Below are positions 39,171 to 51,950 of a stretch of 64,000 nt of DNA, one piece after another. The stretch spans positions 4,445,501 to 4,509,500 of the forward strand of contig NZ_CP016449.1 of NCBI RefSeq assembly GCF_001713375.1. The letters are read 5' to 3'. The DNA comes from Hydrogenophaga sp. RAC07. GTDB taxonomy: Bacteria > Pseudomonadota > Gammaproteobacteria > Burkholderiales > Burkholderiaceae_C. A program made the translations under genes and the position numbers. The notes beneath the pieces were generated by a model that searched no databases, was not told the DNA's origin, and worked only from the letters and a program-made list of their open reading frames with translations. Position 1 is the first letter of the stretch. Each line of letters starts with the position of its first letter.

Positions 39171-40742
39171 TCAGCAGGCGCCTTCTTGTTTGAGCACCAC
39201 GCGCACGGTGCGCAGCATGATCACGATGTCGTACCAGAGCGACCAGTTGCGCACGTACCAGAGGTCCATGTTGATGCGGTGCTGGAAGGTGCTGGTGCTG
39301 CGCCCGCTGATCTGCCACAGGCCGGTGATGCCGGGGCGGGCCTTGCCGTAGGCGGCAATGCTCTTGCCGTACTCGTCCAGCTCACGGGCCAGCAGCGGGC
39401 GCGGGCCGACCAGGCTCATGTGACCGCGCAAGACGTTGATGAGCTGGGGCAGCTCGTCGATGCTGGTGCGGCGGATGAGGTGGCCGATCTTGGTGATGCG
39501 GGGGTCGTTGGCGAGCTTGAAGTTGCTGGCCAGGTACTGCACGTAGAGTTTTTCGTTCTCGGTTTTCCAGCGCTCCAGGGCACCGTCGGCGTCCATCACC
39601 ATGCTGCGGAACTTGATGAAATCGAACAGCTGGCCGTCCACCCCCACGCGCTTCTGCACGAAGAACACCGGGCCGGCGTCGTCGCGCTTGATGCGCCACG
39701 CGACCCAGGCGAACAGCGGCGCCAGCAGCACCAGCAGGGCGGCAGCACCGGCCATGTCGAGCGCGCGCTTGAGCACCTGCGGGCCGCGGCGGTTGAGGTT
39801 GTTACGGGCGCGCAGCAGCAACACGTCGTGACTGAAAAAGTGCGAGACCTCCATGCCGTAGATGGGCAGGCCGCCGAGCGCGGGCACCATCACCAGGTCG
39901 TCGCGGGTGAGCATGAGGTCCTGCGCCAGTTCACGCAGCCAGTTGTTGTCACGAACGCCGAGCACGCCCACCAGCTGGTAGGAGCCGGGCCGCGCAAGGA
40001 ACTCGCGCACGCCGGGGCTGAGCGCGGTGGGTGCGGCCACGTATTCACCGAGCTCAACCAGCCGTGCGCCGGGGTCGGGGCAGACGACGGCCACAGGCTT
40101 GTAGCCCAGCAGCGGCTCGCTCGCGAGCGCGGCGGCGGCCTTCTCGACGTCCTCGGGGTGGCCGATGAGCACATAGGGTTGTGTGAGCAGACCGGCCCGC
40201 AGCAGCCAGGTGCGGATGGCCAGGCGGGCCAGTGGCAGGAAGATCAGCACCAGGCCCCAGGTGGCGCCGGTCCACAAGCGCGAGAGCGGCCACTTGGCGA
40301 GGTAGATGACCATCGCGTCGAGCAGCGCTGCCAGCACGATGACCTGGATCAACTGGCGGGTTTCGTCCCACCAGGGCTTGCGGCGGTGGGCGGAGTAGTG
40401 GCCTTGCACCGTCCACATCCAGCTCACGATGGTCAGGGCAATCGCGGCGAACAGCATCACGCGCAGGTGGCCATTGGCGGCCCACCAGACGTTCATCGCC
40501 TGCGGCAGGCTCATGTCGTGGAGCAGCCAGGCGGGCAGGCGCCCGGCGACGAAGCAGAGCGCAAGCACCAGCAGGTCGGTGAACACCAGCCAGGCCTTGG
40601 CCTGTCGCTGACGTTCGTTCAGGTTGGCCCAGGGAGCGAGGCTGCGGGCGAGGTCGTGTTCGTTGAAGAACGGGACGATGGTGCGCTGGCCGCTTTCGGC
40701 GGGCGGCGGCCTCTCGAAGGGACGGGTGCGTGCGCGCGCCAT
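39171..40742 (-). CDS. Undecaprenyl-phosphate sugar phosphotransferase (WbaP/WcaJ-type initiating enzyme)
   Basis: A 523-residue polyprenyl phosphate hexose-1-phosphate transferase. Four or more N-terminal helices (about 50-190), a central nucleotide-binding-like domain, and the catalytic C-terminus with KRALDMAGAAALLVLLAPLF, PVFFVQKRVGVDG, FKFRSMVMDAD, LPQLINVLRGHMSLVGPRP and RPGITGLWQISGRS. It starts each repeat unit by loading glucose- or galactose-1-phosphate on the carrier. It is the first gene of the locus and lies behind a predicted promoter. Confidence 0.92.
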   Translation of the reverse strand: MARARTRPFERPPPAESGQRTIVPFFNEHDLARSLAPWANLNERQRQAKAWLVFTDLLVLALCFVAGRLPAWLLHDMSLPQAMNVWWAANGHLRVMLFAAIALTIVSWMWTVQGHYSAHRRKPWWDETRQLIQVIVLAALLDAMVIYLAKWPLSRLWTGATWGLVLIFLPLARLAIRTWLLRAGLLTQPYVLIGHPEDVEKAAAALASEPLLGYKPVAVVCPDPGARLVELGEYVAAPTALSPGVREFLARPGSYQLVGVLGVRDNNWLRELAQDLMLTRDDLVMVPALGGLPIYGMEVSHFFSHDVLLLRARNNLNRRGPQVLKRALDMAGAAALLVLLAPLFAWVAWRIKRDDAGPVFFVQKRVGVDGQLFDFIKFRSMVMDADGALERWKTENEKLYVQYLASNFKLANDPRITKIGHLIRRTSIDELPQLINVLRGHMSLVGPRPLLARELDEYGKSIAAYGKARPGITGLWQISGRSTSTFQHRINMDLWYVRNWSLWYDIVIMLRTVRVVLKQEGAC

Positions 40743-41080
40743 GTCAGCACCTCTTTCGTGTGGAGATGTTCATGGCGTGGACCCCATGCCGGTGCACGGG
40801 ATGCACTCGCATGGAGCGCGGAAACGTCTGGTGGTTGAAGCACGACATGAAAGGACACCCTGAGTTCGTTGTGTGCGCTGACGTACAGTCGCGCACTTGT
40901 TTTTTCATTCTTATGGCGGGTAGCGCAGGTGCATGTAACGAGCTTTGAGTAAAGCGACGAGGAGTGCGCTGGATCGAACATTGCTTCGATACGCTGACCC
41001 CGGGCGAGTGGGTGGACTGCGCCGCAATTGATGGCTCTTGTGATGTTCGACAGAGCCGGGTTCTCAAGGAGGTTGAAACG
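40743..41080. other. 338-base leader/intergenic region upstream of the exopolysaccharide operon
   Basis: No convincing protein gene on either strand. It must contain the main promoter of the 19-gene minus-strand locus and the promoter of the plus-strand transposase-like gene. A candidate minus-strand promoter is listed at 40910-40938, leaving a leader of about 160 bases before the first gene. A T-run (CTTGTTTTTTC, 40896-40906) lies in the leader. Confidence 0.5.
40910..40938 (-). promoter_or_regulatory. Candidate sigma-70 promoter of the exopolysaccharide operon
   Basis: On the minus strand TTACAT (-35-like) is followed after 17 bases by CATAAG (-10-like), each matching four of six consensus bases. 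The spacing is ideal and the position precedes the first gene. The score is modest. Confidence 0.4.
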
Positions 41081-42205
41081 ATGCGAGTTGCCGAAGCGAT
41101 CGAACTGGATGCGAAGACCACATCCGAGTTGCTCACGCTGTCCAAAGGCAGACGGGTTGAGGCCCGTGTGCAGCAACGTGCCAACGTCATCCTGCTGGCG
41201 GCGCAAGGTTGGCAAAACAAGAACATTGCCCAGGAGGTCAAGCTGGACCGCCGACAAGTGGCGTTGTGGCGGCGGCGCTTCATTGAAGGCGGCCTGCCTG
41301 CCCTGCTGAAAGACGCGTCGCGTTCAGGGCGCACACCGAGCGTGACGTCCGAAGTCGAGTCGCACATCCTGCACACCACATTGCACGAGCAACCGGCTTC
41401 GGGCGCGCCATGGAGCACCCGCACACTGGCCTTGCACCTGGGCCTGAGCGCCACCACCATCGGACGGGTGTGGCGACGCAACGGCATCCAGCCGCACCTG
41501 AACAGCACGGCCAAGGTGTCAGCCGGGGCTGCGCTTCACATCGACACCGAGTGGGTGGATGTCGTGGGGCTGTACATGAACCCGCGCGAGCGTGTGCTGG
41601 TGCTCAGCTGCGCCGGGAACGGCCATGTCCACACGCCCGGCCGCACCCAGCACCTGGTTGATGGCGCCCCGGCCAGCGACCACGGGCGCCATGTCATGGC
41701 AATCCTGTTGCCCGCGCTGAAGAAACTGGAGGGCGCCGTGATCTCAGGGTGCCAGGATCGTCATCACCACGAGGAGTGGCTCCGGTTCCTTCGCCTGATC
41801 GAGCGCAAGACACCCAGGCACCTGCAATTGCACCTGATCGTGGACAACCAGGCCACGCACAAGCGTCCCAAGGTCCAGGCCTGGCTCGCCCAACACCCGC
41901 GCCTGGTCGTGCATTCAACCCCCACCAATGCCTCTTGGTTGAACACGGTCAGGCGGTTGTTGCGCGACAACGCGAGGCACGGCATGCAGCACGACCGCTT
42001 CACCAGCGCGGCCGACCTCCAGCAAGCCATCGCGCAGCACATCGAGCGCCCGGGCAAGGAAGCCAAAGCATTCATCTGGACAGTCGACGCGCCGGACACC
42101 GCCCAGGTGACCCGCGCCAAGGCTGCGCTGGCGCGCTGGACGATAAGTGCAGACCAGAATGGTGCACTGCAGCATGAAGCCGATGTAACGGCTGCCTGGG
42201 CATGA
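41081..42205 (+). CDS. IS630-type transposase-like protein with altered catalytic residues
   Basis: A 374-residue protein led by a textbook AAGGAGG site. The N-terminal 135 residues form the IS630 DNA-binding region (LLAAQGWQNKNIAQEVKLDR, then RQVALWRRRF; LGLSATTIGRVWRRNGI). The catalytic half is recognisable (LIVDNQATHKRPKVQAW with Asp255; HSTPTNASWLN). As I recall the family, the first acid follows LSC in a CDEK context and the last acid lies in WLNxVER; here these are Ala178 and Arg291, so two of three DDE acids seem lost. It has no frameshift or stop. No clear terminal inverted repeats were found. It may be a dead insertion sequence or an exapted DNA-binding protein. Confidence 0.8.
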   Translation: MRVAEAIELDAKTTSELLTLSKGRRVEARVQQRANVILLAAQGWQNKNIAQEVKLDRRQVALWRRRFIEGGLPALLKDASRSGRTPSVTSEVESHILHTTLHEQPASGAPWSTRTLALHLGLSATTIGRVWRRNGIQPHLNSTAKVSAGAALHIDTEWVDVVGLYMNPRERVLVLSCAGNGHVHTPGRTQHLVDGAPASDHGRHVMAILLPALKKLEGAVISGCQDRHHHEEWLRFLRLIERKTPRHLQLHLIVDNQATHKRPKVQAWLAQHPRLVVHSTPTNASWLNTVRRLLRDNARHGMQHDRFTSAADLQQAIAQHIERPGKEAKAFIWTVDAPDTAQVTRAKAALARWTISADQNGALQHEADVTAAWA

Positions 42206-42263: not shown

Positions 42264-42740
42264 TCAGATGGCCGAGATGTCGGTTTGCACCGGCCAGCGG
42301 AGCGATTGCATGGCACTGTTGCCGCTGGCTTCGAACTCGTGCTGCAAGAGCAGCGTGTAGCGGCCCGGACGCGGCGTGCACAAGCGGTAGCCGTCGCTTA
42401 CCGGGCTGAGCGTGATGCCGCCGGATTGCTCGGTTTGCAAGCGCCAGGCTTCCACGTCCGAAGTGTTCATGCGCAAGGTGACGCAAAAGCCGCGTTTCAT
42501 GGTGGAGAGCACGACCAGTCGCTGCTCGGCGCTCCAGTCGCCACCAGACTCCGCGATCAGCTGAACCGGATGGCTGTTCTCCAGTACCCGCATGATGGGT
42601 GGAACGACGATGCGAATGTCGATGGAAGCGCTGGCGCTGTGCTGGTTGACCGCTCGACTCTCACCCATGCCCGGCGCTGGAACCAGCAGCAGAGCGCCGG
42701 AGGTCAGGCAGACAAGAAGAGGGCGTGGCAGGCGGCACAT
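42264..42740 (-). CDS. Secreted subunit-like protein of the fibre operon (158 residues)
   Basis: It has a signal peptide (LLVCLTSGALLLVPAPGMG, cleavage near residue 25) then a beta-rich domain. Residues 37-53, SASIDIRIVVPPIMRVL, closely resemble SATANLDLRVVIPRVLFL in the first subunit of the same operon, so it may be a related tip or capping subunit. One cysteine pair (FCVTL, RLCTPR) could form a disulfide. No named family was recognised. It is the last gene of the operon, 67 bases after the outer-membrane gene. Confidence 0.65.
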   Translation of the reverse strand: MCRLPRPLLVCLTSGALLLVPAPGMGESRAVNQHSASASIDIRIVVPPIMRVLENSHPVQLIAESGGDWSAEQRLVVLSTMKRGFCVTLRMNTSDVEAWRLQTEQSGGITLSPVSDGYRLCTPRPGRYTLLLQHEFEASGNSAMQSLRWPVQTDISAI

Positions 42741-42807
42741 GAACCACTATCGGCCCCCCCTCCGGGAACTTGAGACCCTCGCTACGGTTCGCCCAGATCC
42801 CCAACCG

Positions 42808-44793
42808 CTATTCGCTGCGCTGTACGGGGAGTGTCAGGGTCACACTTTCGCGCATGCGCACGTCCACCCGCGTCTGTCCCTCGTCAATCACGTTCCAGGG
42901 CAGGGGCAGGGTCTCGGGTCGTACAGTGACGGTACGCGGACCGCTGGCCACAAAGGGAAATTCGAAGCGCCCCTGGTTGTCGGTGCGCACGGAGTAGCGG
43001 TTGTCCAGAAAAACAGTGACGTTGGGTACGCCGGTTTCGCTGGCTTCTTGAGTACCGCTGCGGTTGGCGTCGAAGTACACCGTGCCCTCGATACGCCCAC
43101 CCCCGTCGCTGGACTTGCCACCCAGCGGCACATTGCGGCTGCCTGCTTGAAACTCATAGCGCAACACCGCATAGAGCGAGCGGTCGCTGTCTCGGACCAA
43201 CACATCCGGCGGTGCCAGCGGGTCCAGCGACGGGCTGAACCGGCTGCGGCCCGAAGAGCGGGTGTAATTGCCCTCCATGCTCCAGCGGGCGTCGATGCGC
43301 CAGTTCGCGCCAAGGTTCATGCTGTTGCGTGTCTGCCCAGTGCTTCCGCGCTCGGTGTTGACATTGCCACGCAGGCCAGCCTTGCTGGACAGTGGTGCAG
43401 ACACACTCAATGCACCATTCCATGTGGTCTCGGCAGGCAGGTTTCGGGCGGCGCTGTAGGCGGTTGCCCCCAGGCTGGTCGACAGGGCCCAGCCTTGCGG
43501 CACCGTCCATTCCTGATCCCAGATCAGGCTGCGGGTGGCGATCTGGTCTTGTCCCCCTGCAAATTCCAGGCGCAGGCCGCTGGTGCCCCAGCCATTCTGG
43601 AAGCGCCAGTCGCCATAGGTGTTCCAGGCGTCGCCATTGAAGCGACGCAAAGCGGCGCCGGCTCCCAGCGTGTGGTCGCGGTTGAGGCGCCAGCGTGCCG
43701 ATCCCGTGGCGAAGTAGCCACTGCCGCTGCGCCCGCTGATGGAATCCAGCCAGTCCACCGAGCCTTCGGCCGACCATTGGCGGGTCGCCCAGTTGGTGCG
43801 CAGGTAGGCGCCCACGATGTCGTTGGCCAGTGGCAGGTTGGCCCAGGTCAGGTCGGCCTCCAGCCGGTAGGCGCCCACACCGTGACGGCGCGGCCCCTCT
43901 TCCCATTCGCTGTCCATCCAGAATCCTCGGCGCGCACCGCTCAGGCTGCTGGATTGGGTGCTGATGACTTGACCCTGGATGTGGTGATTCGCGCCTTCGT
44001 GCCGCAGCGCCACGAGGGTGGAGTTGGCGTTGACGAAATCACTGGGTTGTTGCGGGCTGTCCAGCGACGACACGCCGCGCGCATCTTCGTGCCGGAGGGC
44101 TGCGGTCCAGCCTTGGCGGGAAAGCGTATCGGCGCCCGAGGCGTTGATGCGCCACTGGCCGGCCAGGGTGGTGCGCCGTCCGGGCAGTGATCGAAACCCG
44201 CTGGCGGGGAGGAAGTCCAGCCGTCCGGGCTCGCCCGTGGAGGCCTGCAACTGCAAACCTTGCTCGGGGTTCTCGAACTCGGTGCCAACGCCCTGAAGGA
44301 TGGCCGAAGGTACGTAAATGCGCGCCGGCAAGCGCATGATGTCCGGCGCTGGCGTGTTGATGATGCCCAGCTCATTGCTGGTGAGCCAGCCACCGCCCAA
44401 CGGCATCGCGACCTGGCGCAAGGTGAGCGTACCGCTGTTGTCACGCGGCGCGTACGTTCCATCGATGGACAGCGTGCCGTGGTTGGGTGTTTCCAGCAGG
44501 CCATAGATGCCGTAGCCGATGCGGGTGCTTTGGGTCTGGTCAAAAGGCTGGGTGCCCAACCGCGTCTCCAGTCGCAGGAAGCGCGGCCAGCCTTCGCGGT
44601 CGTAGGCATAGGCCTCGTTCTCTTCCAGAGCTTCCGGCACCAGGTTGTCGATCACGCGGTCCACATAGAGGGCCTCGGGTGCGCTGGAGACACGGGATGC
44701 TGTCGCATCCTGTGCCCACACGCCAGCCTGCTGGGTGGCGAGACCCACGAAGGCCAGCAGGCTGCAGAGCGGGTGCGCCACCCGAACACTCAT
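42808..44793 (-). CDS. Outer-membrane beta-barrel (usher-like) with C-terminal SdrD-B-like domain
   Basis: A 661-residue exported protein; the signal peptide ends near AGVWA (residue 27). Residues about 60-550 are alternating aromatic-rich strands, such as TRIGYGIYGLLETPNHGTLS, GSGYFATGSARWRLN and RSLYAVLRYEFQAG, typical of a barrel. About residues 565-655 form an SdrD-B/Cna-B-type domain: GRIEGTVYFDANRSGTQEA, then SETGVPNVTVFLDNRYSVRT. By order and context it takes the usher position, but it is shorter than PapC ushers (about 800) and I see no classical usher N- or C-domains. The ATG overlaps the chaperone stop by four bases. Confidence 0.7.
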   Translation of the reverse strand: MSVRVAHPLCSLLAFVGLATQQAGVWAQDATASRVSSAPEALYVDRVIDNLVPEALEENEAYAYDREGWPRFLRLETRLGTQPFDQTQSTRIGYGIYGLLETPNHGTLSIDGTYAPRDNSGTLTLRQVAMPLGGGWLTSNELGIINTPAPDIMRLPARIYVPSAILQGVGTEFENPEQGLQLQASTGEPGRLDFLPASGFRSLPGRRTTLAGQWRINASGADTLSRQGWTAALRHEDARGVSSLDSPQQPSDFVNANSTLVALRHEGANHHIQGQVISTQSSSLSGARRGFWMDSEWEEGPRRHGVGAYRLEADLTWANLPLANDIVGAYLRTNWATRQWSAEGSVDWLDSISGRSGSGYFATGSARWRLNRDHTLGAGAALRRFNGDAWNTYGDWRFQNGWGTSGLRLEFAGGQDQIATRSLIWDQEWTVPQGWALSTSLGATAYSAARNLPAETTWNGALSVSAPLSSKAGLRGNVNTERGSTGQTRNSMNLGANWRIDARWSMEGNYTRSSGRSRFSPSLDPLAPPDVLVRDSDRSLYAVLRYEFQAGSRNVPLGGKSSDGGGRIEGTVYFDANRSGTQEASETGVPNVTVFLDNRYSVRTDNQGRFEFPFVASGPRTVTVRPETLPLPWNVIDEGQTRVDVRMRESVTLTLPVQRSE

Positions 44794-45611
44794 GGAGCGA
44801 ATCTGGCGTCAAGCGGCAGACGGTTCTTGCCCCATTCGAGCGTGCCTTTGACCACCAGCGGGAACCGCACCTCGGGTGCGGTCTTGCCTTCGCCCACCAC
44901 GGGCGAGAGAGCCACGCCTCGCGTCTCGCCCGGCATGATCGGTATGTCGGCCGGCGTCATTTCGAGCGTTTGCCCGGCGGCGTCGATGGCGTTCACGTAG
45001 CCTTCGAGTCGGCCATGAGCGTTGCCGCTGTTGCGCACATCGAGCGTTGCCACGCTCTTGCCGTCGCTTGCCTTGACGACGCGGGTGGCCGTGAGGTTGA
45101 GCACCGGAGCAGCATCGCCCACAGCGGCGTACACGATCACCCCGATCCGTCCGCCCACGTCGACGCCGCTCCTGGCGGGGTCAAGGCCTTCGATCATGAT
45201 CGCGAAGCGGCATTCGCGTGGCGTTGTGCCGGCGGGCGGGTTGATCTCGAAGCGGAAGCGGTAGCGCGCGCCGGGCTCCAGTGTGAGTTCGCGTCGCTCG
45301 ATCGTCACCCATGGACGGCAGCTCTCGGGCGCCAGCTGGTCGGTGAAGACCACCGAGTTGTCGGCCTGGAAGGTCCAGTCGTTGGTGTACACCCGGTAGC
45401 CGCCTTTGAACTGGCCCACGTGCTGGATCTCGAACACCTGACGCAGCGGCTGGCCAGGCGTGGCCTTCACTTCAAAACGCGGGGGTGTGATGTAGGCGGC
45501 AAAACCTTGCGCATTCCCCATGAGCGGCGTCAAGAACAGTACACAGACACACGCCCAACCCAGCAGCGTATTCAATCTGTTGAGCAACGATCCCGGAAGC
45601 GAAGTCGTCAT
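44790..45611 (-). CDS. PapD-like periplasmic chaperone
   Basis: A 273-residue exported protein (signal peptide to about residue 35, PLMGNAQG). Two immunoglobulin-like domains are suggested: FAAYITPPRFEVKATPGQPL through ECRFAIMIEG, then GRIGVIVYAAVGDAAPVLNL through the end. Strand patterns such as GVIVYAAVG and LELEPGARYRF-like LTLEPGARYRFRF fit pilus chaperones, which donate a strand to unfolded subunits. It lies between subunit genes and the outer-membrane gene, as expected for a chaperone/usher pair. Pfam-level identity was not confirmed. Confidence 0.7.
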   Translation of the reverse strand: MTTSLPGSLLNRLNTLLGWACVCVLFLTPLMGNAQGFAAYITPPRFEVKATPGQPLRQVFEIQHVGQFKGGYRVYTNDWTFQADNSVVFTDQLAPESCRPWVTIERRELTLEPGARYRFRFEINPPAGTTPRECRFAIMIEGLDPARSGVDVGGRIGVIVYAAVGDAAPVLNLTATRVVKASDGKSVATLDVRNSGNAHGRLEGYVNAIDAAGQTLEMTPADIPIMPGETRGVALSPVVGEGKTAPEVRFPLVVKGTLEWGKNRLPLDARFAP

Positions 45612-45618
45612 GGCGGGT

Positions 45619-46080
45619 TCAGTTGGTATCGAGTTCGAAGTGAAAATTCAGGCGACGGCTGTTGGATGTCCAATCGGCATTCGATCGCAGCCGAACCTGC
45701 ATCTGGTCTTCCAGAGTGGCGCCGGGAATCGTACCGGCGAAGACCAGGGCGCGTTCGCCGGACACCAGGCGCCCGGCCTGCAGTCTGCCCTGCGTCGTCC
45801 AGACAGCCTCGATGCTGGAAGCCTCGTCGCGCGGCAGCACCATGTAGATGCGACCACTGCGGCCGATCCAGTCGCGGGTGTCGATGCGGATGTTGACGGT
45901 CACCCAGGCTTCCATGCCGCTCGCGTTCATCTGGCCTCGGGCGAACGGCAACCACTGCATCTGCACGTTGGGCGGAACGGTGTAACTCAACGAGTCGTCC
46001 AGCCGGAACGGATTCGCCAGGCTGGACCCGAATGCCAACATGCCCAGCGCAGCAATGACAAGTCGCCGGCGTCCCGTCAT
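45619..46080 (-). CDS. Secreted protein of the fibre operon, unknown family (153 residues)
   Basis: A signal peptide (LVIAALGMLAFGSSLA, cleavage near residue 22) precedes a beta-rich domain: LSYTVPPNVQMQWLPFARGQ, EAWVTVNIRIDTRDWIG, IYMVLPRDE, LNFHFELDTN. No cysteine pair and no named family. Its start overlaps the stop of the second subunit gene by four bases, and the chaperone gene follows after seven bases, so it is surely part of the same system; an adaptor or assembly factor is possible. Confidence 0.6.
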   Translation of the reverse strand: MTGRRRLVIAALGMLAFGSSLANPFRLDDSLSYTVPPNVQMQWLPFARGQMNASGMEAWVTVNIRIDTRDWIGRSGRIYMVLPRDEASSIEAVWTTQGRLQAGRLVSGERALVFAGTIPGATLEDQMQVRLRSNADWTSNSRRLNFHFELDTN

Positions 46081-46742
46081 GGTGAAGCCAGTGTGTAGGT
46101 CACACGGCCGTTGTAGGTACCAGCCGCACGCACGTCGCTGTTGGCGTATGAAAAGGTGTGGCAGTTTTCGAGGTAGGTGTTGCCGGGAACCGTGGCGAGG
46201 TTCTGGGTTCCCCCGTTGAACGTGCCGGGTGCAATCACGTTGGGGACGCCGCTGCCCGGGGCGGCCACAGTCCAGCTGATCTGGCTGATCGGGATGGTGT
46301 CTCCGTTGGCGTTGATGAGGTTGGCCGGCGAAGAAACGGTGAGGCTGGCGTTGGCTGCGCCGCTGTTGCGGCGGTAGCCTGCGCCCACCATCACCTGACT
46401 GGCCGGCGTTGGGCAGGTGTTGTTGCCGTCGCCGTACAAACTGATGTTCTGTGTGCTGTCGCTGGTCATGGCCAGCGGTGTTCCGTTGCCCAACTGCGCG
46501 GCCGGGACAGTGACGGCCACGAGATTGACAGGGCCGCTGCGCCCGGCGGTGCCATTGAGTGTGCCGCTGCTGCCACTCAGTGCGCCGTTGCCAACATGCA
46601 GAAACAGACGACGGCTGCCAGAGTTGACGGACAAGGACCAAGCGAGCGCAGCGGACATTTCCGCGCCGCACCACACCACCAGGCAGGCGCAACCGAGCAA
46701 CCGTCTTGTGCGGCGGCCAACGAGTTGCTGTGAGGTGGTCAT
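46077..46742 (-). CDS. Second pilin-like subunit (221 residues)
   Basis: An exported protein (signal region LLGCACLVVWCGAEMSAALA) with small, Ser/Thr/Asn/Gly-rich beta sequence. The C-terminus, GTYNGRVTYTLASP, is nearly the same as GTYVGRVTYTATMP of the first subunit, and both share ISW.V or similar strands and a YANS motif near the end (HTFSYANSDV versus WTYAYANSTT). Two cysteines (NTCPTP, ENCHTF) may pair. It is likely a minor or alternative fibre subunit. Confidence 0.65.
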   Translation of the reverse strand: MTTSQQLVGRRTRRLLGCACLVVWCGAEMSAALAWSLSVNSGSRRLFLHVGNGALSGSSGTLNGTAGRSGPVNLVAVTVPAAQLGNGTPLAMTSDSTQNISLYGDGNNTCPTPASQVMVGAGYRRNSGAANASLTVSSPANLINANGDTIPISQISWTVAAPGSGVPNVIAPGTFNGGTQNLATVPGNTYLENCHTFSYANSDVRAAGTYNGRVTYTLASP

Positions 46743-46774
46743 CGAGCCGTACTCAGCTGTTTCACAGGGTCAGT

Positions 46775-46856
46775 GGCGCCCAGTCGAGGGGCGCCGGGAG
46801 TCACCATTTTCGGCGCCAAGGCGGGGTAGTCCACCGGTGCGCAAGGCACACCGGTG
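46775..46856. promoter_or_regulatory. Two hairpins between the first and second subunit genes
   Basis: In the 128-base gap are two inverted repeats: CACCGGTG at 46832-46839 and 46849-46856 (nine-base loop, beginning 15 bases after the first subunit stop in transcription order) and GGCGCC at 46775-46780 and 46790-46795. Without T-runs they are more likely RNA-stability or attenuation elements that raise the first subunit over later genes. Confidence 0.45.
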
Positions 46857-46870
46857 AGCTTGGCCAGCCA

Positions 46871-47461
46871 TCAGGGCATGGTGGCGGTGTAGGTGACCCG
46901 GCCCACGTAGGTGCCGAAGGCGGGGGTGGTGCTGTTGGCGTACGCGTAGGTCCAGTTGGCGGTCTGGTTGGTCACGCGCCCGGCCAACGTTGGCAGGCTG
47001 GTGCCACCGCTGAATGCGGGTGCGGCCAATGCCCCGTTGCTCGATGTCACGGTCAGCTCGGTGAACGGAATGGTGTCGGCGCCGCTGGTCAGAACCAGCG
47101 GGTTGGTCGCGGTGATCGTGACCTGGCCGTTGTTGCCAAAAACACGCACGGGAATCGATGCCGGGCCTGAAGTCAGGCCGGTGCTGGTGATGGATGCGGC
47201 CGGGGCTGCTGCGCCGGCGCCCACGTCCAGCGGGTTGGTTGTGTAGTCGAAGGTCAGGGTGTCGATCGCGGCATTGGTCGCCAGCGGTGTGCCGGAACCG
47301 GTGCCCACACCCAGAAAGAGAACACGCGGGATCACCACGCGCAGGTCCAGGTTGGCGGTGGCGGAGCCGGCACCGGACACCAACTGCGATTCTGCCGAAG
47401 CCAGCAAGGGGGTGGCCAGCGCCAGTGCCAGGGTGGTTTTCAGGAGCAGGGCTTTTTTCAC
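46871..47461 (-). CDS. First (probably major) pilin-like subunit (196 residues)
   Basis: A GTG start behind AAGGA gives MKKALLLKTTLALALATPLL, a clear signal peptide cut near residue 23. The mature part has no cysteine and is rich in Ala, Gly, Thr, Ser and Val, as in fibre subunits. An early strand ANLDLRVVIPRVLFLG (36-51) and a terminal strand GTYVGRVTYTATMP could be the exchanged and receiving strands in subunit polymerisation. It is the first gene, directly after the predicted promoter. No named pilin family was recognised. Confidence 0.7.
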   Translation of the reverse strand: MKKALLLKTTLALALATPLLASAESQLVSGAGSATANLDLRVVIPRVLFLGVGTGSGTPLATNAAIDTLTFDYTTNPLDVGAGAAAPAASITSTGLTSGPASIPVRVFGNNGQVTITATNPLVLTSGADTIPFTELTVTSSNGALAAPAFSGGTSLPTLAGRVTNQTANWTYAYANSTTPAFGTYVGRVTYTATMP

Positions 47462-48170: not shown

Positions 48171-48350
48171 GATGGCCTTGTAGATGAAAGAATGTTGCTC
48201 GATCATCGATAAATCGGGCATGAAACGCAAACACCTGTCGCGCGACGGGGCATACACTGTGCGCCACACTGGAGTTGTGTGCCTATGAGGCACGCTGCTT
48301 TGGCCCACGACACGCCCACGAGGCGACCTGCCCATCACGGAGACAAAACG

Positions 48351-51300
48351 ATGAACGCCCCCCTGCCCGAACACATCCGCCGCGCCCTGGAAACCGTGAC
48401 GCTGGACGACAAGTACGCGCTCGACCAGGGGCGCGCCTTCATGAGTGGCGTGCAGGCGTTGGTCAAGCTGCCCATGCTGCAGCGCCAGCGCGATGCGCTG
48501 GTGGGCAAGAACACGGCGGGTTTCATCAGTGGTTATCGCGGCTCGCCACTGGGCGGCTACGACCAGGCCTTGCAGAAGGCAGCGCCCCACCTGAAGGCGC
48601 AGAACATCGTGTTCCAGCCGGGTGTGAACGAAGAGCTGGCCGCCACCGCTTTGTGGGGCACACAGCAGCTGGGCTTTGCGCCGCCCGGCACCAACAAGTT
48701 CGACGGTGTGTTCGGCATCTGGTACGGCAAGGGCCCGGGCGTGGACCGCTGCTCCGACGTGTTCAAACACGCCAACATGGCCGGCACCACGCCCTGGGGT
48801 GGTGTGATCGCGGTGGCCGGCGACGACCACGTGGCCAAGAGCTCCACCGCCGCGCACCAGAGCGACCACATCTTCAAGGCCTGCGGCCTGCCGGTGTTCT
48901 TCCCGACCTCGGTGCAGGACATCCTCGACCTGGGCCTGCACGCCATCGCCATGAGCCGCTTCAGCGGCGTGTGGGCCGGCATGAAGACGATCCAGGAGAT
49001 CGTGGAGTCCAGCGCCACCGCCGTGATCGACCCGGACCGCGTGAACATCGTGGTGCCCGAGTTCGTCATGCCACCCGGCGGCGTGCACATCCGCTGGCCC
49101 GACCACGCGCTCGATCAGGAAGCCCGCCTGTTCGACTACAAGTGGTACGCCGCACTCGCCTACATCCGCGCCAACAAGCTCAACCACAACGTGATCGCCG
49201 GGCCGAACGACCGCTTTGGCCTGATCGCCAGCGGCAAGGCCTACAACGACACGCGCCAGGCCCTGCTGGACCTCGGCCTGGACGACGACACCTGCCGCCG
49301 CATCGGCCTGCGCCTGCACAAGGTGGCGGTGGTGTGGCCGCTGGAGGCGCAGACCACGCGCGAATTCGCCACCGGCCTGCGCGAGATCCTGGTGGTGGAA
49401 GAGAAGCGCCAGGTCATCGAGTACCAGCTGAAGGAAGAGCTCTACAACTGGCGGCCCGACGTGCGCCCCAACGTGCTGGGCAAGTTCGAGGAGGTCGAAG
49501 GCGACTTCAGTGGCGGCGAGTGGAGCATGCCCAACCCGAGCGAGCGCACCCTGCTGCGCGCCAACGCCGACCTGTCGCCCGCGATCATCGCGCGCGCCAT
49601 CGCCAAGCGCTTGAAGAAGATGGGCCAGGTGCCCGAGGACGTGATGGCGCGCATCGACGCGCAACTCGCCATCCTGACCGCTCAGGAACAGTCCATGCAG
49701 ACGCTGCTCACGCAGGGTGTGGCCGGCGCCGAGCGCCAGCCCTGGTTCTGCTCGGGCTGCCCGCACAACACCAGCACACGCGTACCCGAAGGCTCGCGCG
49801 CCATGGCCGGCATCGGCTGCCATTTCATGACGATCTGGATGGACCGCGCCACCGTGGGCTTCACCCAGATGGGCGGCGAGGGCGTGCCGTGGGTCGGCCA
49901 GCAGCCGTTCAGCAAAGACCAGCACATGTTCGCCAACCTGGGCGACGGCACCTACTTCCACAGCGGCCTGCTGGCGGTGCGCCAGAGCATCGCTGCGGGT
50001 GTGAACATCACCTACAAGATCCTCTACAACGACGCCGTGGCCATGACCGGCGGCCAGCAGGTGGGCGAGCGTCCCGAGGGCCACAGCGTGGTGCAGATCG
50101 CGCAGAGCATGCGCGCCGAAGGCGCGGTCAAGATCACCATCGTGACCGACGAGCCCGAGAAGTACGACGGCGTGAAAGGCCTGCCCGAGGGCATCGCCAT
50201 CCAGCACCGCGACCTGCTCGATGCGGTGCAGAAGGAGTTCCGCGAGATCCAGGGCACCACGGTCATCATTTACGACCAGACCTGCGCCACCGAAAAGCGC
50301 CGCCGCCGCAAACGGGGCACGCTCGTGGACCCGGCCAAGCGCGTGGTGATCAACGAGCTGGTGTGCGAGGGCTGCGGCGACTGCGGTGTGCAGTCCAACT
50401 GCCTGTCGGTGGAGCCGCTGGAGACCGAGTTCGGCCGCAAGCGCACCATCAACCAGAGCAGCTGCAACAAGGACTACTCGTGTGTGAAGGGCTTCTGCCC
50501 GAGCTTCATCACGGTCGAGGGCGGTCAGCTGCGCAAGAAGGACAAGAAGGGCGCCGCTGCCGAATGGACCGGCGGCGTTGTGCCCGCGCCCCGGTTGCCC
50601 GCGCTCGGTTCGGAAGCCTGGGGCGTGATCGTGGCCGGCGTCGGCGGCACGGGTGTCATCACCATCGGCCAGCTGCTCGGTGTGGCCGCGCACCTGGAAG
50701 GCAAGGGCATCGTCACGCAGGACGCGGCGGGCTTGGCGCAAAAGGGCGGCGCGACCTGGAGCCATGTGCTCATCGGTGCGCGGCAGGACGACATCCGCAC
50801 CACGCGCGTCGCCTCCGCCTCGGCCGACCTGATCATCGGCTGCGACCCCATCGTGAGCGCCAACAAGGAAACCTGGCAGCGCCTGCGCGCCGGCCGCACG
50901 CACGTGGCCCTGAACGTGAGCGCCACGCCCACGGCAGCCTTCGTGAAGAACCCCGACTGGCAGAACCCGGCGCAAGCCTGCGTGGACGCCCTGGTGCACA
51001 GCCTGGGCACCGAGTCGGTGGGCGCGTTCGACGCCGAAACCGCCGCCACCCGCCTGATGGGCGACAGCCTGTACACCAACCCCATGATGCTGGGCTACGC
51101 CTGGCAAAAGGGCTGGTTGCCGCTGGAGCTGGCCTCGCTGATGCGCGCGATCGAGCTCAACGCCGTGCAGGTGGACAAGAACAAGGCCGCGTTTGAATGG
51201 GGTCGTCGTGCCGCGCACAACCCGCAGGCCGTGGCGGCCCTGTGGCAGAAGGCCGGCGCCGGTGAACAGGTGATCCAGTTCAAGAAGCGCGAGTCGCTCG

Positions 51301-51950
51301 ACGACCTGGTCGCCCGCCGTGTCGAGTTCCTCACCGGCTACCAGAACGCCGCCTACGCTGCCGAGTACCAGCGCTTCGTCGCCCGCGTGCGCGCGGCCGA
51401 GGCGCCTCTGGGCAAAACCACGCTGAGTGAGGCCGTGGTGCGCAACCTCTTCAAACTCATGGCTTACAAGGACGAGTACGAGGTCGCACGCCTGCACAGC
51501 GATCCGGCCTTCCACGCCCGCCTGGCGAGCCAGTTCGAAGGCGATTTCAAGCTCAAGGTGCACCTGGCACCTCCGCTGATCGCCAAGAAGAACGAGCGTG
51601 GCGAACTGGTCAAGCAGCCGTTTGGCCCTTACATGTTCACGGCGTTCAAGTGGCTGGCGCGCTTCAAGGGACTGCGCGGCACCGCGCTGGACATCTTTGG
51701 CCGCACCGAAGAGCGCCGCACCGAGCGCGCGTTGATTGCGCAGTACCGCGCCGACATCGAGGCGCTGCTGCCCCAGCTCGCTGCGACCAACCTGGATTTG
51801 GCGGTGGAGATTGCGCGCATTCCGGAGCACATCAAGGGCTTCGGGCATGTGAAGGAGCGCAACCTGGCCGCGGCCCGCACGCGCCGCGACGGATTGCTGA
51901 CCCAATGGCGCCAGCCCGCCGGCTTGAGCGCCCTGGCCAAAGCCGCCTGA
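48351..51950 (+). CDS. Indolepyruvate:ferredoxin oxidoreductase, fused single-chain
   Basis: A 1199-residue thiamine-diphosphate enzyme that oxidatively decarboxylates aryl or branched 2-oxo acids to acyl-CoA, passing electrons to ferredoxin. Order: pyrimidine-binding part (FISGYRGSPLGGYDQAL), TPP/Mg part (FCSGCPHNTSTRVPEGSRA, GIGCHFM, GGEGVPWVGQQPF), a 4Fe-4S cluster motif (VCEGCGDCGVQSNC) and a C-terminal gamma-like domain (VIVAGVGGTGVITIGQLL, QDAAGLAQKGGATWSHV). Archaeal IorA and IorB are thus fused. The ATG at 48351 follows GGAGACAAAACG; the longer frame lacks similarity. It likely works in aromatic amino-acid degradation under the adjacent Lrp-type regulator. Confidence 0.95.
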   Translation: MNAPLPEHIRRALETVTLDDKYALDQGRAFMSGVQALVKLPMLQRQRDALVGKNTAGFISGYRGSPLGGYDQALQKAAPHLKAQNIVFQPGVNEELAATALWGTQQLGFAPPGTNKFDGVFGIWYGKGPGVDRCSDVFKHANMAGTTPWGGVIAVAGDDHVAKSSTAAHQSDHIFKACGLPVFFPTSVQDILDLGLHAIAMSRFSGVWAGMKTIQEIVESSATAVIDPDRVNIVVPEFVMPPGGVHIRWPDHALDQEARLFDYKWYAALAYIRANKLNHNVIAGPNDRFGLIASGKAYNDTRQALLDLGLDDDTCRRIGLRLHKVAVVWPLEAQTTREFATGLREILVVEEKRQVIEYQLKEELYNWRPDVRPNVLGKFEEVEGDFSGGEWSMPNPSERTLLRANADLSPAIIARAIAKRLKKMGQVPEDVMARIDAQLAILTAQEQSMQTLLTQGVAGAERQPWFCSGCPHNTSTRVPEGSRAMAGIGCHFMTIWMDRATVGFTQMGGEGVPWVGQQPFSKDQHMFANLGDGTYFHSGLLAVRQSIAAGVNITYKILYNDAVAMTGGQQVGERPEGHSVVQIAQSMRAEGAVKITIVTDEPEKYDGVKGLPEGIAIQHRDLLDAVQKEFREIQGTTVIIYDQTCATEKRRRRKRGTLVDPAKRVVINELVCEGCGDCGVQSNCLSVEPLETEFGRKRTINQSSCNKDYSCVKGFCPSFITVEGGQLRKKDKKGAAAEWTGGVVPAPRLPALGSEAWGVIVAGVGGTGVITIGQLLGVAAHLEGKGIVTQDAAGLAQKGGATWSHVLIGARQDDIRTTRVASASADLIIGCDPIVSANKETWQRLRAGRTHVALNVSATPTAAFVKNPDWQNPAQACVDALVHSLGTESVGAFDAETAATRLMGDSLYTNPMMLGYAWQKGWLPLELASLMRAIELNAVQVDKNKAAFEWGRRAAHNPQAVAALWQKAGAGEQVIQFKKRESLDDLVARRVEFLTGYQNAAYAAEYQRFVARVRAAEAPLGKTTLSEAVVRNLFKLMAYKDEYEVARLHSDPAFHARLASQFEGDFKLKVHLAPPLIAKKNERGELVKQPFGPYMFTAFKWLARFKGLRGTALDIFGRTEERRTERALIAQYRADIEALLPQLAATNLDLAVEIARIPEHIKGFGHVKERNLAAARTRRDGLLTQWRQPAGLSALAKAA

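What the first reader, a model, noticed from the sequence alone, without database searches (positions are those of the whole stretch)
42264..47461. Non-canonical chaperone/usher-like fibre operon with an SdrD-B-tailed outer-membrane barrel
Six minus-strand genes, all with signal peptides and several with 4-base overlaps, encode two pilin-like subunits, two further small secreted proteins, a PapD-like chaperone and a 661-residue barrel in the usher position. The barrel ends in an SdrD-B/Cna-B-like domain and lacks obvious PapC usher domains; the subunits fit no pilin family I know. This looks like a surface-fibre assembly system of a type not well described.
Basis: partly seen in the sequence, partly recalled or inferred. 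Interest (0 to 1): 0.75.

Follow-up and report, generated by a model that had tools for sequence, protein, structure and literature searches.

The report
Surface-fibre operon with unusual barrel
A conserved set of genes in Hydrogenophaga and scattered relatives looks like a machine that builds protein fibres on the cell surface, with a recognisable chaperone but a stripped-down outer-membrane channel that known models do not recognise; nobody has tested it here in the laboratory.

Summary
The six genes exist as described (42264-47461, minus strand, two 4-base overlaps) and form a conserved cassette. In the genus, 51 of 67 genomes have the chaperone; all 51 have the barrel, each within 3 kb. 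Five core families (pilin-like g1 and g2, small g3, chaperone g4, barrel g5) recur together in 14 families of the class. The chaperone belongs to the PapD superfamily (HHalign 95.8%), nearest to chaperones beside divergent but genuine ushers. It keeps two of three C-terminus-anchoring residues of archaic/alternative chaperones but not the superfamily's proline. g1 and g2 are homologous; g1 carries a donor-strand-like N-terminal extension, g2 nearly none, as a tip subunit would. The barrel (roughly 20-26 strands) has no Usher-model hit and no room for the usher's N-terminal and plug domains. Its SdrD-B-like tail resembles usher tails, but so do unrelated SdrD-B domains. Both structure predictions failed (pLDDT 40 and 47). 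Best reading: a non-classical chaperone/usher-type fibre system with a minimal usher. Export and donor-strand exchange are inferred. Eight searches of an open-access library listed no description of it.

The parts
46871..47461 (-). g1: pilin-like subunit, 196 aa, GTG start; 22-residue donor-strand-like N-terminal extension before the shared core; probable major subunit
   Evidence: homologous to g2 (HHalign 99.6%); extension lengths; no Pfam or PDB relative
46077..46742 (-). g2: pilin-like subunit, 221 aa, core starts about 9 residues after the predicted cleavage site; probable tip subunit
   Evidence: 4-base overlap with g3
45619..46080 (-). g3: small secreted protein, 153 aa, RLDDS motif near the mature N-terminus; role unknown, tip or accessory subunit proposed
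   Evidence: no convincing Pfam family; present in 15 of 17 chaperone-selected loci
44790..45611 (-). g4: two-domain periplasmic chaperone of the PapD superfamily, 273 aa; R135 and R201 conserved, C98/C134 nearly invariant
42808..44793 (-). g5: predicted outer-membrane barrel, 661 aa, with C-terminal SdrD-B-like domain (about residues 560-661); proposed minimal usher; 4-base overlap with g4
42264..42740 (-). g6: secreted protein, 158 aa, shares 19 residues of g1's N-terminal motif, then a different body with C86 and C121; proposed minor (base or terminating) subunit; seen only in Hydrogenophaga and near kin

Best explanation
A non-classical chaperone/usher-type fibre assembly system with a minimal usher. 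Subunits enter the periplasm by signal peptides. g4, a PapD-superfamily chaperone, holds each subunit by its C-terminus (through R135 and R201) and completes its fold with a strand. At the outer membrane the donor-strand-like N-terminus of the next g1 replaces the chaperone, so g1 polymerises. g2, with almost no extension, is the first (tip) subunit, g3 a tip or accessory partner, and g6, with the donor-strand motif on another body, a minor subunit in Hydrogenophaga. The fibre leaves through the g5 barrel; lacking the usher's N-terminal domain, g5 would receive chaperone-subunit complexes on its SdrD-B-like tail. SHOWN by computation: the operon, its strict co-occurrence, the chaperone's superfamily, the two conserved arginines, g1/g2 homology, the difference in N-terminal extension, and the absence of Usher-model hits. 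INFERRED: barrel fold, donor-strand exchange, polymerisation, export through g5, docking on the tail, and the roles of g2, g3 and g6.
For: Chaperone profile against four PapD-type chaperones: 95.8%, E 7e-9, both domains; three unrelated proteins at most 0.5%. Nearest outside relatives (L118 98.9%; L137 94.6%) stand beside proteins that, aligned with the one beside L119, match ushers at 98.5% over 679 columns. EcpB Arg89 and Arg148 map to R135 (37 of 44) and R201 (42 of 44), the anchor arginines of PMC4654587 (passages). Loci chosen by the chaperone alone: 17 of 17 with strong matches have the barrel, 16 g1, 16 g2, 15 g3; in 10 of the 17 the barrel is on the other strand. Genus: 51 of 51 chaperone-bearing genomes have the barrel. 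Extension before the core: g1 median 25 residues (51 of 62 rows scored), g2 median 11 (26 of 43). g6 shares g1's 19-residue motif (88%, E 2.9e-6). Estimated strand number near that of ushers.
Against: g5 without its tail has no detectable relation to ushers (0.1-7.8%; other barrels 0.1-1.7%). The tail match to ushers is not specific: 11 of 16 other SdrD-B domains reach z >= 4, and 5 of 10 ushers tried give z < 1.7. The chaperone lacks the proline called invariant in the superfamily and the anchoring tyrosine. FimC and EcpE taken singly give under 1%. Its best PDB sequence match is a WxL-interacting protein, not a pilus chaperone. g1 matches none of ten known or suspected pilins above 4.4%. Structure predictions failed.
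Confidence: 0.62

Rival explanations
1. An ordinary chaperone/usher pilus in a fast-evolving clade: g5 is a true usher that has drifted beyond Pfam and profile comparison, perhaps with a small plug hidden in its longer segments. The mechanism would be entirely standard.
For: Genuine ushers can escape PF00577: the L118 and L137 proteins have no Usher hit yet, with L119's, match ushers at 98.5%. The end of g5's barrel plus tail aligns with the same place of those ushers (95.1%, 150 columns).
Against: No usher N-terminal or plug domain fits the compact members, whereas the L118-type proteins are 833 aa and longer and align with ushers from near their N-termini. Barrel-only comparison is negative.
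Confidence: 0.22
2. Not a fibre machine: g4 is a periplasmic structural or scaffold protein, and g1, g2, g3 and g6 form a surface complex or coat held by g5, comparable to Gram-positive WxL clusters.
For: Best PDB match of the chaperone profile is the WxL-interacting protein 9i25 (E 5.8e-5); such proteins bind WxL proteins at the cell surface (PMC10599100, abstract start and passages). SdrD-B domains also occur in surface adhesins (solved examples).
Against: Match of g4 to pilus chaperones over both domains and conserved anchor arginines; relatives of g4 beside true ushers; repeated g1-type genes in many loci; donor-strand-like extensions.
Confidence: 0.1

Closest known systems
Archaic and alternative (non-classical) chaperone/usher systems (CsuC, EcpB, CfaA chaperones; PMC4654587)
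   Same: Two-domain chaperone with the diagnostic arginine in strand F of domain 1 and the domain-2 arginine; secreted subunits with and without N-terminal extension; one outer-membrane protein
   Different: Anchoring tyrosine and superfamily proline absent; nearly invariant C98/C134; pilins unrelated by sequence to those tried; g5 has no Usher model, N-terminal or plug domain
   Same: Nearest relatives of the chaperone; usher-like proteins with SdrD-B/CarboxypepD-like domains at the C-terminus
   Different: Their outer-membrane proteins are longer, begin with an extra N-terminal region and match ushers throughout; no g1, g2 or g3 family member was found there
Canonical usher locus of the same genome (G000 C1 about 240-243 kb)
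   Same: Chaperone and usher side by side in the same cell
   Different: Usher 849 aa with PF00577 over cut-off and PapD_N at E 1.1e-15
WxL-interacting protein (PDB 9i25)
   Same: Profile match over about 155 positions of g4 (E 5.8e-5)
   Different: Part of a Gram-positive cell-surface cluster with a membrane helix (PMC10599100 abstract and passages); no outer-membrane barrel

Membership tests
PapD superfamily chaperones | Sequence or profile similarity over both Ig-like domains | tested here: met
   HHalign 95.8%, E 7e-9; PapD_N listed at E <= 1 for 5 of 25 members, best 3e-4, none claimed over cut-off
PapD superfamily chaperones | Proline called invariant in the whole superfamily (Pro60 of EcpB) | tested here: not met
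   Maps to R106 (R in 40, K in 2, P in 1 of 44 rows)
Non-classical (archaic/alternative) chaperones | Conserved arginine of domain 1 (Arg89 of EcpB and CsuC) | tested here: met
   Maps to R135, arginine in 37 of 44 rows
Non-classical (archaic/alternative) chaperones | Domain-2 arginine and tyrosine (Arg148 and Tyr169 of EcpB) | tested here: inconclusive
   Arginine met (R201, 42 of 44); tyrosine not met (P224, 42 of 44)
Usher family (PF00577) | Match to the Usher model | tested here: not met
   No Usher hit at E <= 1 in 24 of 24 members scanned; HHalign of the barrel part 0.1-7.8%. The model also misses true ushers, so this is not proof of absence
Usher family (PF00577) | N-terminal chaperone-docking domain and plug (sizes recalled, about 125 and 75 aa) | tested here: not met
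   Segment lengths leave no room in compact members; judged from an alignment, not a structure
Usher family (PF00577) | 24-stranded outer-membrane barrel | tested here: inconclusive
   Crude counts 22-26 (family profile) and 18-25 (window alone) depending on threshold; model of pLDDT 39.9 not usable
Usher family (PF00577) | C-terminal beta-sandwich domain after the barrel | tested here: inconclusive
   z 6.1 with one own-genus usher, at least 3.6 with five, below 1.7 with the other five; other SdrD-B domains do as well (11 of 16)
Chaperone/usher pilins | N-terminal donor-strand extension on polymerising subunits, absent on the tip subunit | tested here: inconclusive
   Lengths fit (g1 median 25, g2 median 11) and hydrophobic residues alternate, but the strand itself was not seen in a structure
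Chaperone/usher pilins | Membership in a known pilin family or fold | tested here: not met
   No convincing Pfam match, no PDB sequence match, no HHalign match to ten pilins; fold prediction failed
Chaperone/usher pathway | Donor-strand exchange and a surface fibre | not testable with these tools
   Needs a structure or an experiment

The most novel reading that the evidence does not exclude
A class of donor-strand fibre machine apart from the known chaperone/usher clades: a PapD-superfamily chaperone works with a plug-less outer-membrane barrel that lacks the usher's chaperone-docking domain and may not descend from ushers, so recruitment and gating must use another part, most simply the SdrD-B-like tail.
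Probability: 0.3. Interest if true: 0.8.

Novelty: new variant of a known kind. Interest (0 to 1): 0.58.

Why it matters
Known ushers use an N-terminal domain to recruit chaperone-subunit complexes and a plug to gate the pore (recalled). A system spread over at least 14 bacterial families that works without either would show what the minimum is and offer a simple model for fibre assembly at the outer membrane. It would also name a surface structure encoded in 51 of 67 genomes examined in the genus, for which Pfam and NCBIfam give no family beyond the tail domain. The chance find of ushers that Pfam's Usher model misses suggests that the diversity of chaperone/usher systems is undercounted.

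Tried and rejected
Structure prediction of g5 (12 sequences) and of g1 with paralogues and g2 (29 sequences): pLDDT 39.9 and 47.4, not used as evidence of fold. Foldseek of the g5 model: no match at E <= 0.001, generic barrels with some ushers among them at TM 0.12-0.18; uninformative. That the tail proves usher descent: dropped after the control. That the classical lysine (K112) is conserved: not claimed; in the printed alignment R155 does not face it (read by eye). Relatives on viral contigs and plasmids: none found. g1 against the genome's own pilins, FimA, FimF, EcpA and the L117, L118, L119 and L137 pilins: at most 4.4%. A first script for the N-terminal extension gave negative, plainly wrong values for at least a quarter of the scored g1 rows; it was repaired, which still leaves 11 of 62 g1 and 17 of 43 g2 rows unscored, and one g2 row at 29. 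Promoter and terminator scan: nothing above chance. Literature: eight searches listed no paper on this system.
Full report
OBSERVATION. The window lies in a complete 4.67-Mb genome; the nearest named relatives are Hydrogenophaga (best g5 relative 94% identical). Pfam and NCBIfam see only the SdrD-B-like tail of g5 and faint similarities elsewhere.

CONSERVATION. Barrel first: in 200 genomes of the family, 27 match; 14 of them (own genome included) match beyond the tail and 13 in the tail domain only. One scan of GTDB contigs gave 11 further loci, Hydrogenophaga or close kin. All six families are found in each of the 11, but in L040 the only g6 belongs to a neighbouring second cassette, and in L038 the chaperone and barrel frames look broken, so that barrel was left out of the alignments. 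Chaperone profile next: 12 of 399 genomes in the order, 18 of 369 in the class and 5 of 299 in the phylum, the own genome and one congener counted in each. Of the other genomes I fetched 14 of 16 from the class search and 5 of 9 from the order search (20 loci). Seventeen of the 20 loci have a strong chaperone match: all 17 have the barrel, 16 g1, 16 g2 and 15 g3 (L109 stops at a contig end; no g3 seen in L112 and L114). With the own family these make 14 families by the tool's labels. In 10 of the 17 the barrel is on the opposite strand, so the link is more than a shared transcript. The three weak matches (L117-L119) have no barrel of this family. In the genus, 51 of 67 genomes have the chaperone and all 51 have the barrel; each of the 52 chaperone matches lies within 3 kb of a barrel match on the same contig (read off the listings). 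The raw barrel tally is 54: I dropped G1235 and G1260, which match in the tail only; G1256 has a partial barrel and no chaperone.

ARCHITECTURES. Type I (window): g1-g2-g3-g4-g5, with g6 in Hydrogenophaga and near kin. Type II (for example L048, L052, L054): barrel first, one or two further pilins, then g2, g3, chaperone and g1. L040 and L041 carry both side by side.

CHAPERONE. PapD_N is listed at E <= 1 for 5 of 25 members, best 3e-4. HHalign of the family against four PapD-type chaperones together (FimC, EcpB, EcpE, the genome's own) gives 95.8%, E 7e-9; singly 90.3% (EcpB), 23.4% (own), 0.3% (FimC) and 0.5% (EcpE). Controls Skp, MatA and FimE give 0.1-0.5%. The nearest outside relatives are the chaperones of L118 (98.9%) and L137 (94.6%). 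The proteins beside these and beside the L119 chaperone, aligned together, match ushers at 98.5% over 679 columns, although no Usher hit was listed for L118's (E <= 1) or L137's (E <= 0.01). PMC4654587 (passages) names three residues that anchor the subunit's C-terminus in archaic and alternative chaperones and one proline invariant in the superfamily. Mapped through EcpB: Arg89 to R135 (arginine in 37 of 44 rows), Arg148 to R201 (42 of 44), Tyr169 to P224 and Pro60 to R106. C98 and C134 are cysteine in 43 and 42 of 44, possibly a disulphide. The best PDB sequence match is the WxL-interacting protein 9i25 (E 5.8e-5), a reminder that the profile is not pilus-specific.

SUBUNITS. g1 and g2 are homologous (99.6%; 99.4% without signal peptides). 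Between predicted cleavage and the shared core, g1 has a median of 25 residues (51 of 62 rows scored, range 13-33; window 22) and g2 11 (26 of 43 scored, 9-13 but for one row of 29; window 9) (a simple script). In g1 that stretch alternates hydrophobic residues (L38, L40, V42, I44), as donor strands do. g6 shares these 19 residues (88%, E 2.9e-6) and no more. No solved structure or tried pilin resembles them. g3 has no convincing relative.

BARREL. Alternating-hydrophobicity peaks number 22-26 in the family profile and 18-25 in the window protein by itself, depending on threshold; at one threshold (2.5) the window gives 20, the family 22, FimD 27, LptD 27, FhuA 23, EcpC 19, BamA 18 and PgaA 15 (true strand numbers recalled). 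No Usher hit in 24 members scanned. Segment lengths leave no place for an N-terminal or plug domain in compact members. The barrel part by itself gives 0.1-7.8% with ushers and 0.1-1.7% with LptD, FhuA, BamA and PgaA. With the tail, g5 matches ushers plus FimD and EcpC at 86.9% (tail only) and the L118 group at 95.1% over 150 columns including the end of the barrel. By shuffling, the tail reaches z 3.6-6.1 with five own-genus ushers but below 1.7 with five others, FimD and EcpC among them. And 11 of 16 SdrD-B domains of other proteins reach z >= 4 with the same usher tail, so the tail is no proof of descent.

READING. A PapD-superfamily chaperone, homologous secreted subunits with and without a donor-strand-like N-terminus, one large barrel-like protein and strict co-occurrence fit chaperone/usher assembly better than anything else I considered. 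The unusual part is the barrel; whether it is a reduced usher or a separate recruit is open. The own genome also has one canonical usher locus at about 240-243 kb, so this system is additional.

LITERATURE. Eight searches (listings and abstract starts only, apart from passages of PMC4654587 and PMC10599100) listed no description of it. The library lacks most subscription journals and bioRxiv, so this is weak evidence of novelty.

On re-reading I corrected the count of literature searches to eight, the PapD_N and strand-count statements and the control ranges, and repaired the extension script.

Noticed in passing
L118 6382-11299, L119 5022-9695, L137 6377-11256: Compact loci with pilin-like protein, chaperone and a long usher that Pfam's Usher model misses (two scanned); the ushers end in CarboxypepD/SdrD-B-like domains.
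   Followed up: partly
L117 7614-9335: A chaperone distantly related to g4 next to a 269-aa secreted protein with a pilin-like C-terminus; no usher or barrel seen among the ORFs listed around it.
   Followed up: partly
L040 1048-4951 and L041 1-4859: A second, diverged cassette (type II order) directly upstream of the type I cassette.
   Followed up: partly
window 40964-42205 (+): Transposase-like ORF (HTH and DDE_3 domains) next to the g6 end of the operon.
   Followed up: partly
window 39171-40742 (-) and 48279-51950 (+): Flanking genes: a bacterial sugar transferase and a large POR/DUF6537 oxidoreductase; neither looks part of the operon.
   Followed up: no
L015-L030: SdrD-B-like domains in long open frames (976-3670 aa) score against usher tails as well as g5's tail does (11 of 16 at z >= 4); usher tails may belong to this domain superfamily.
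   Followed up: partly
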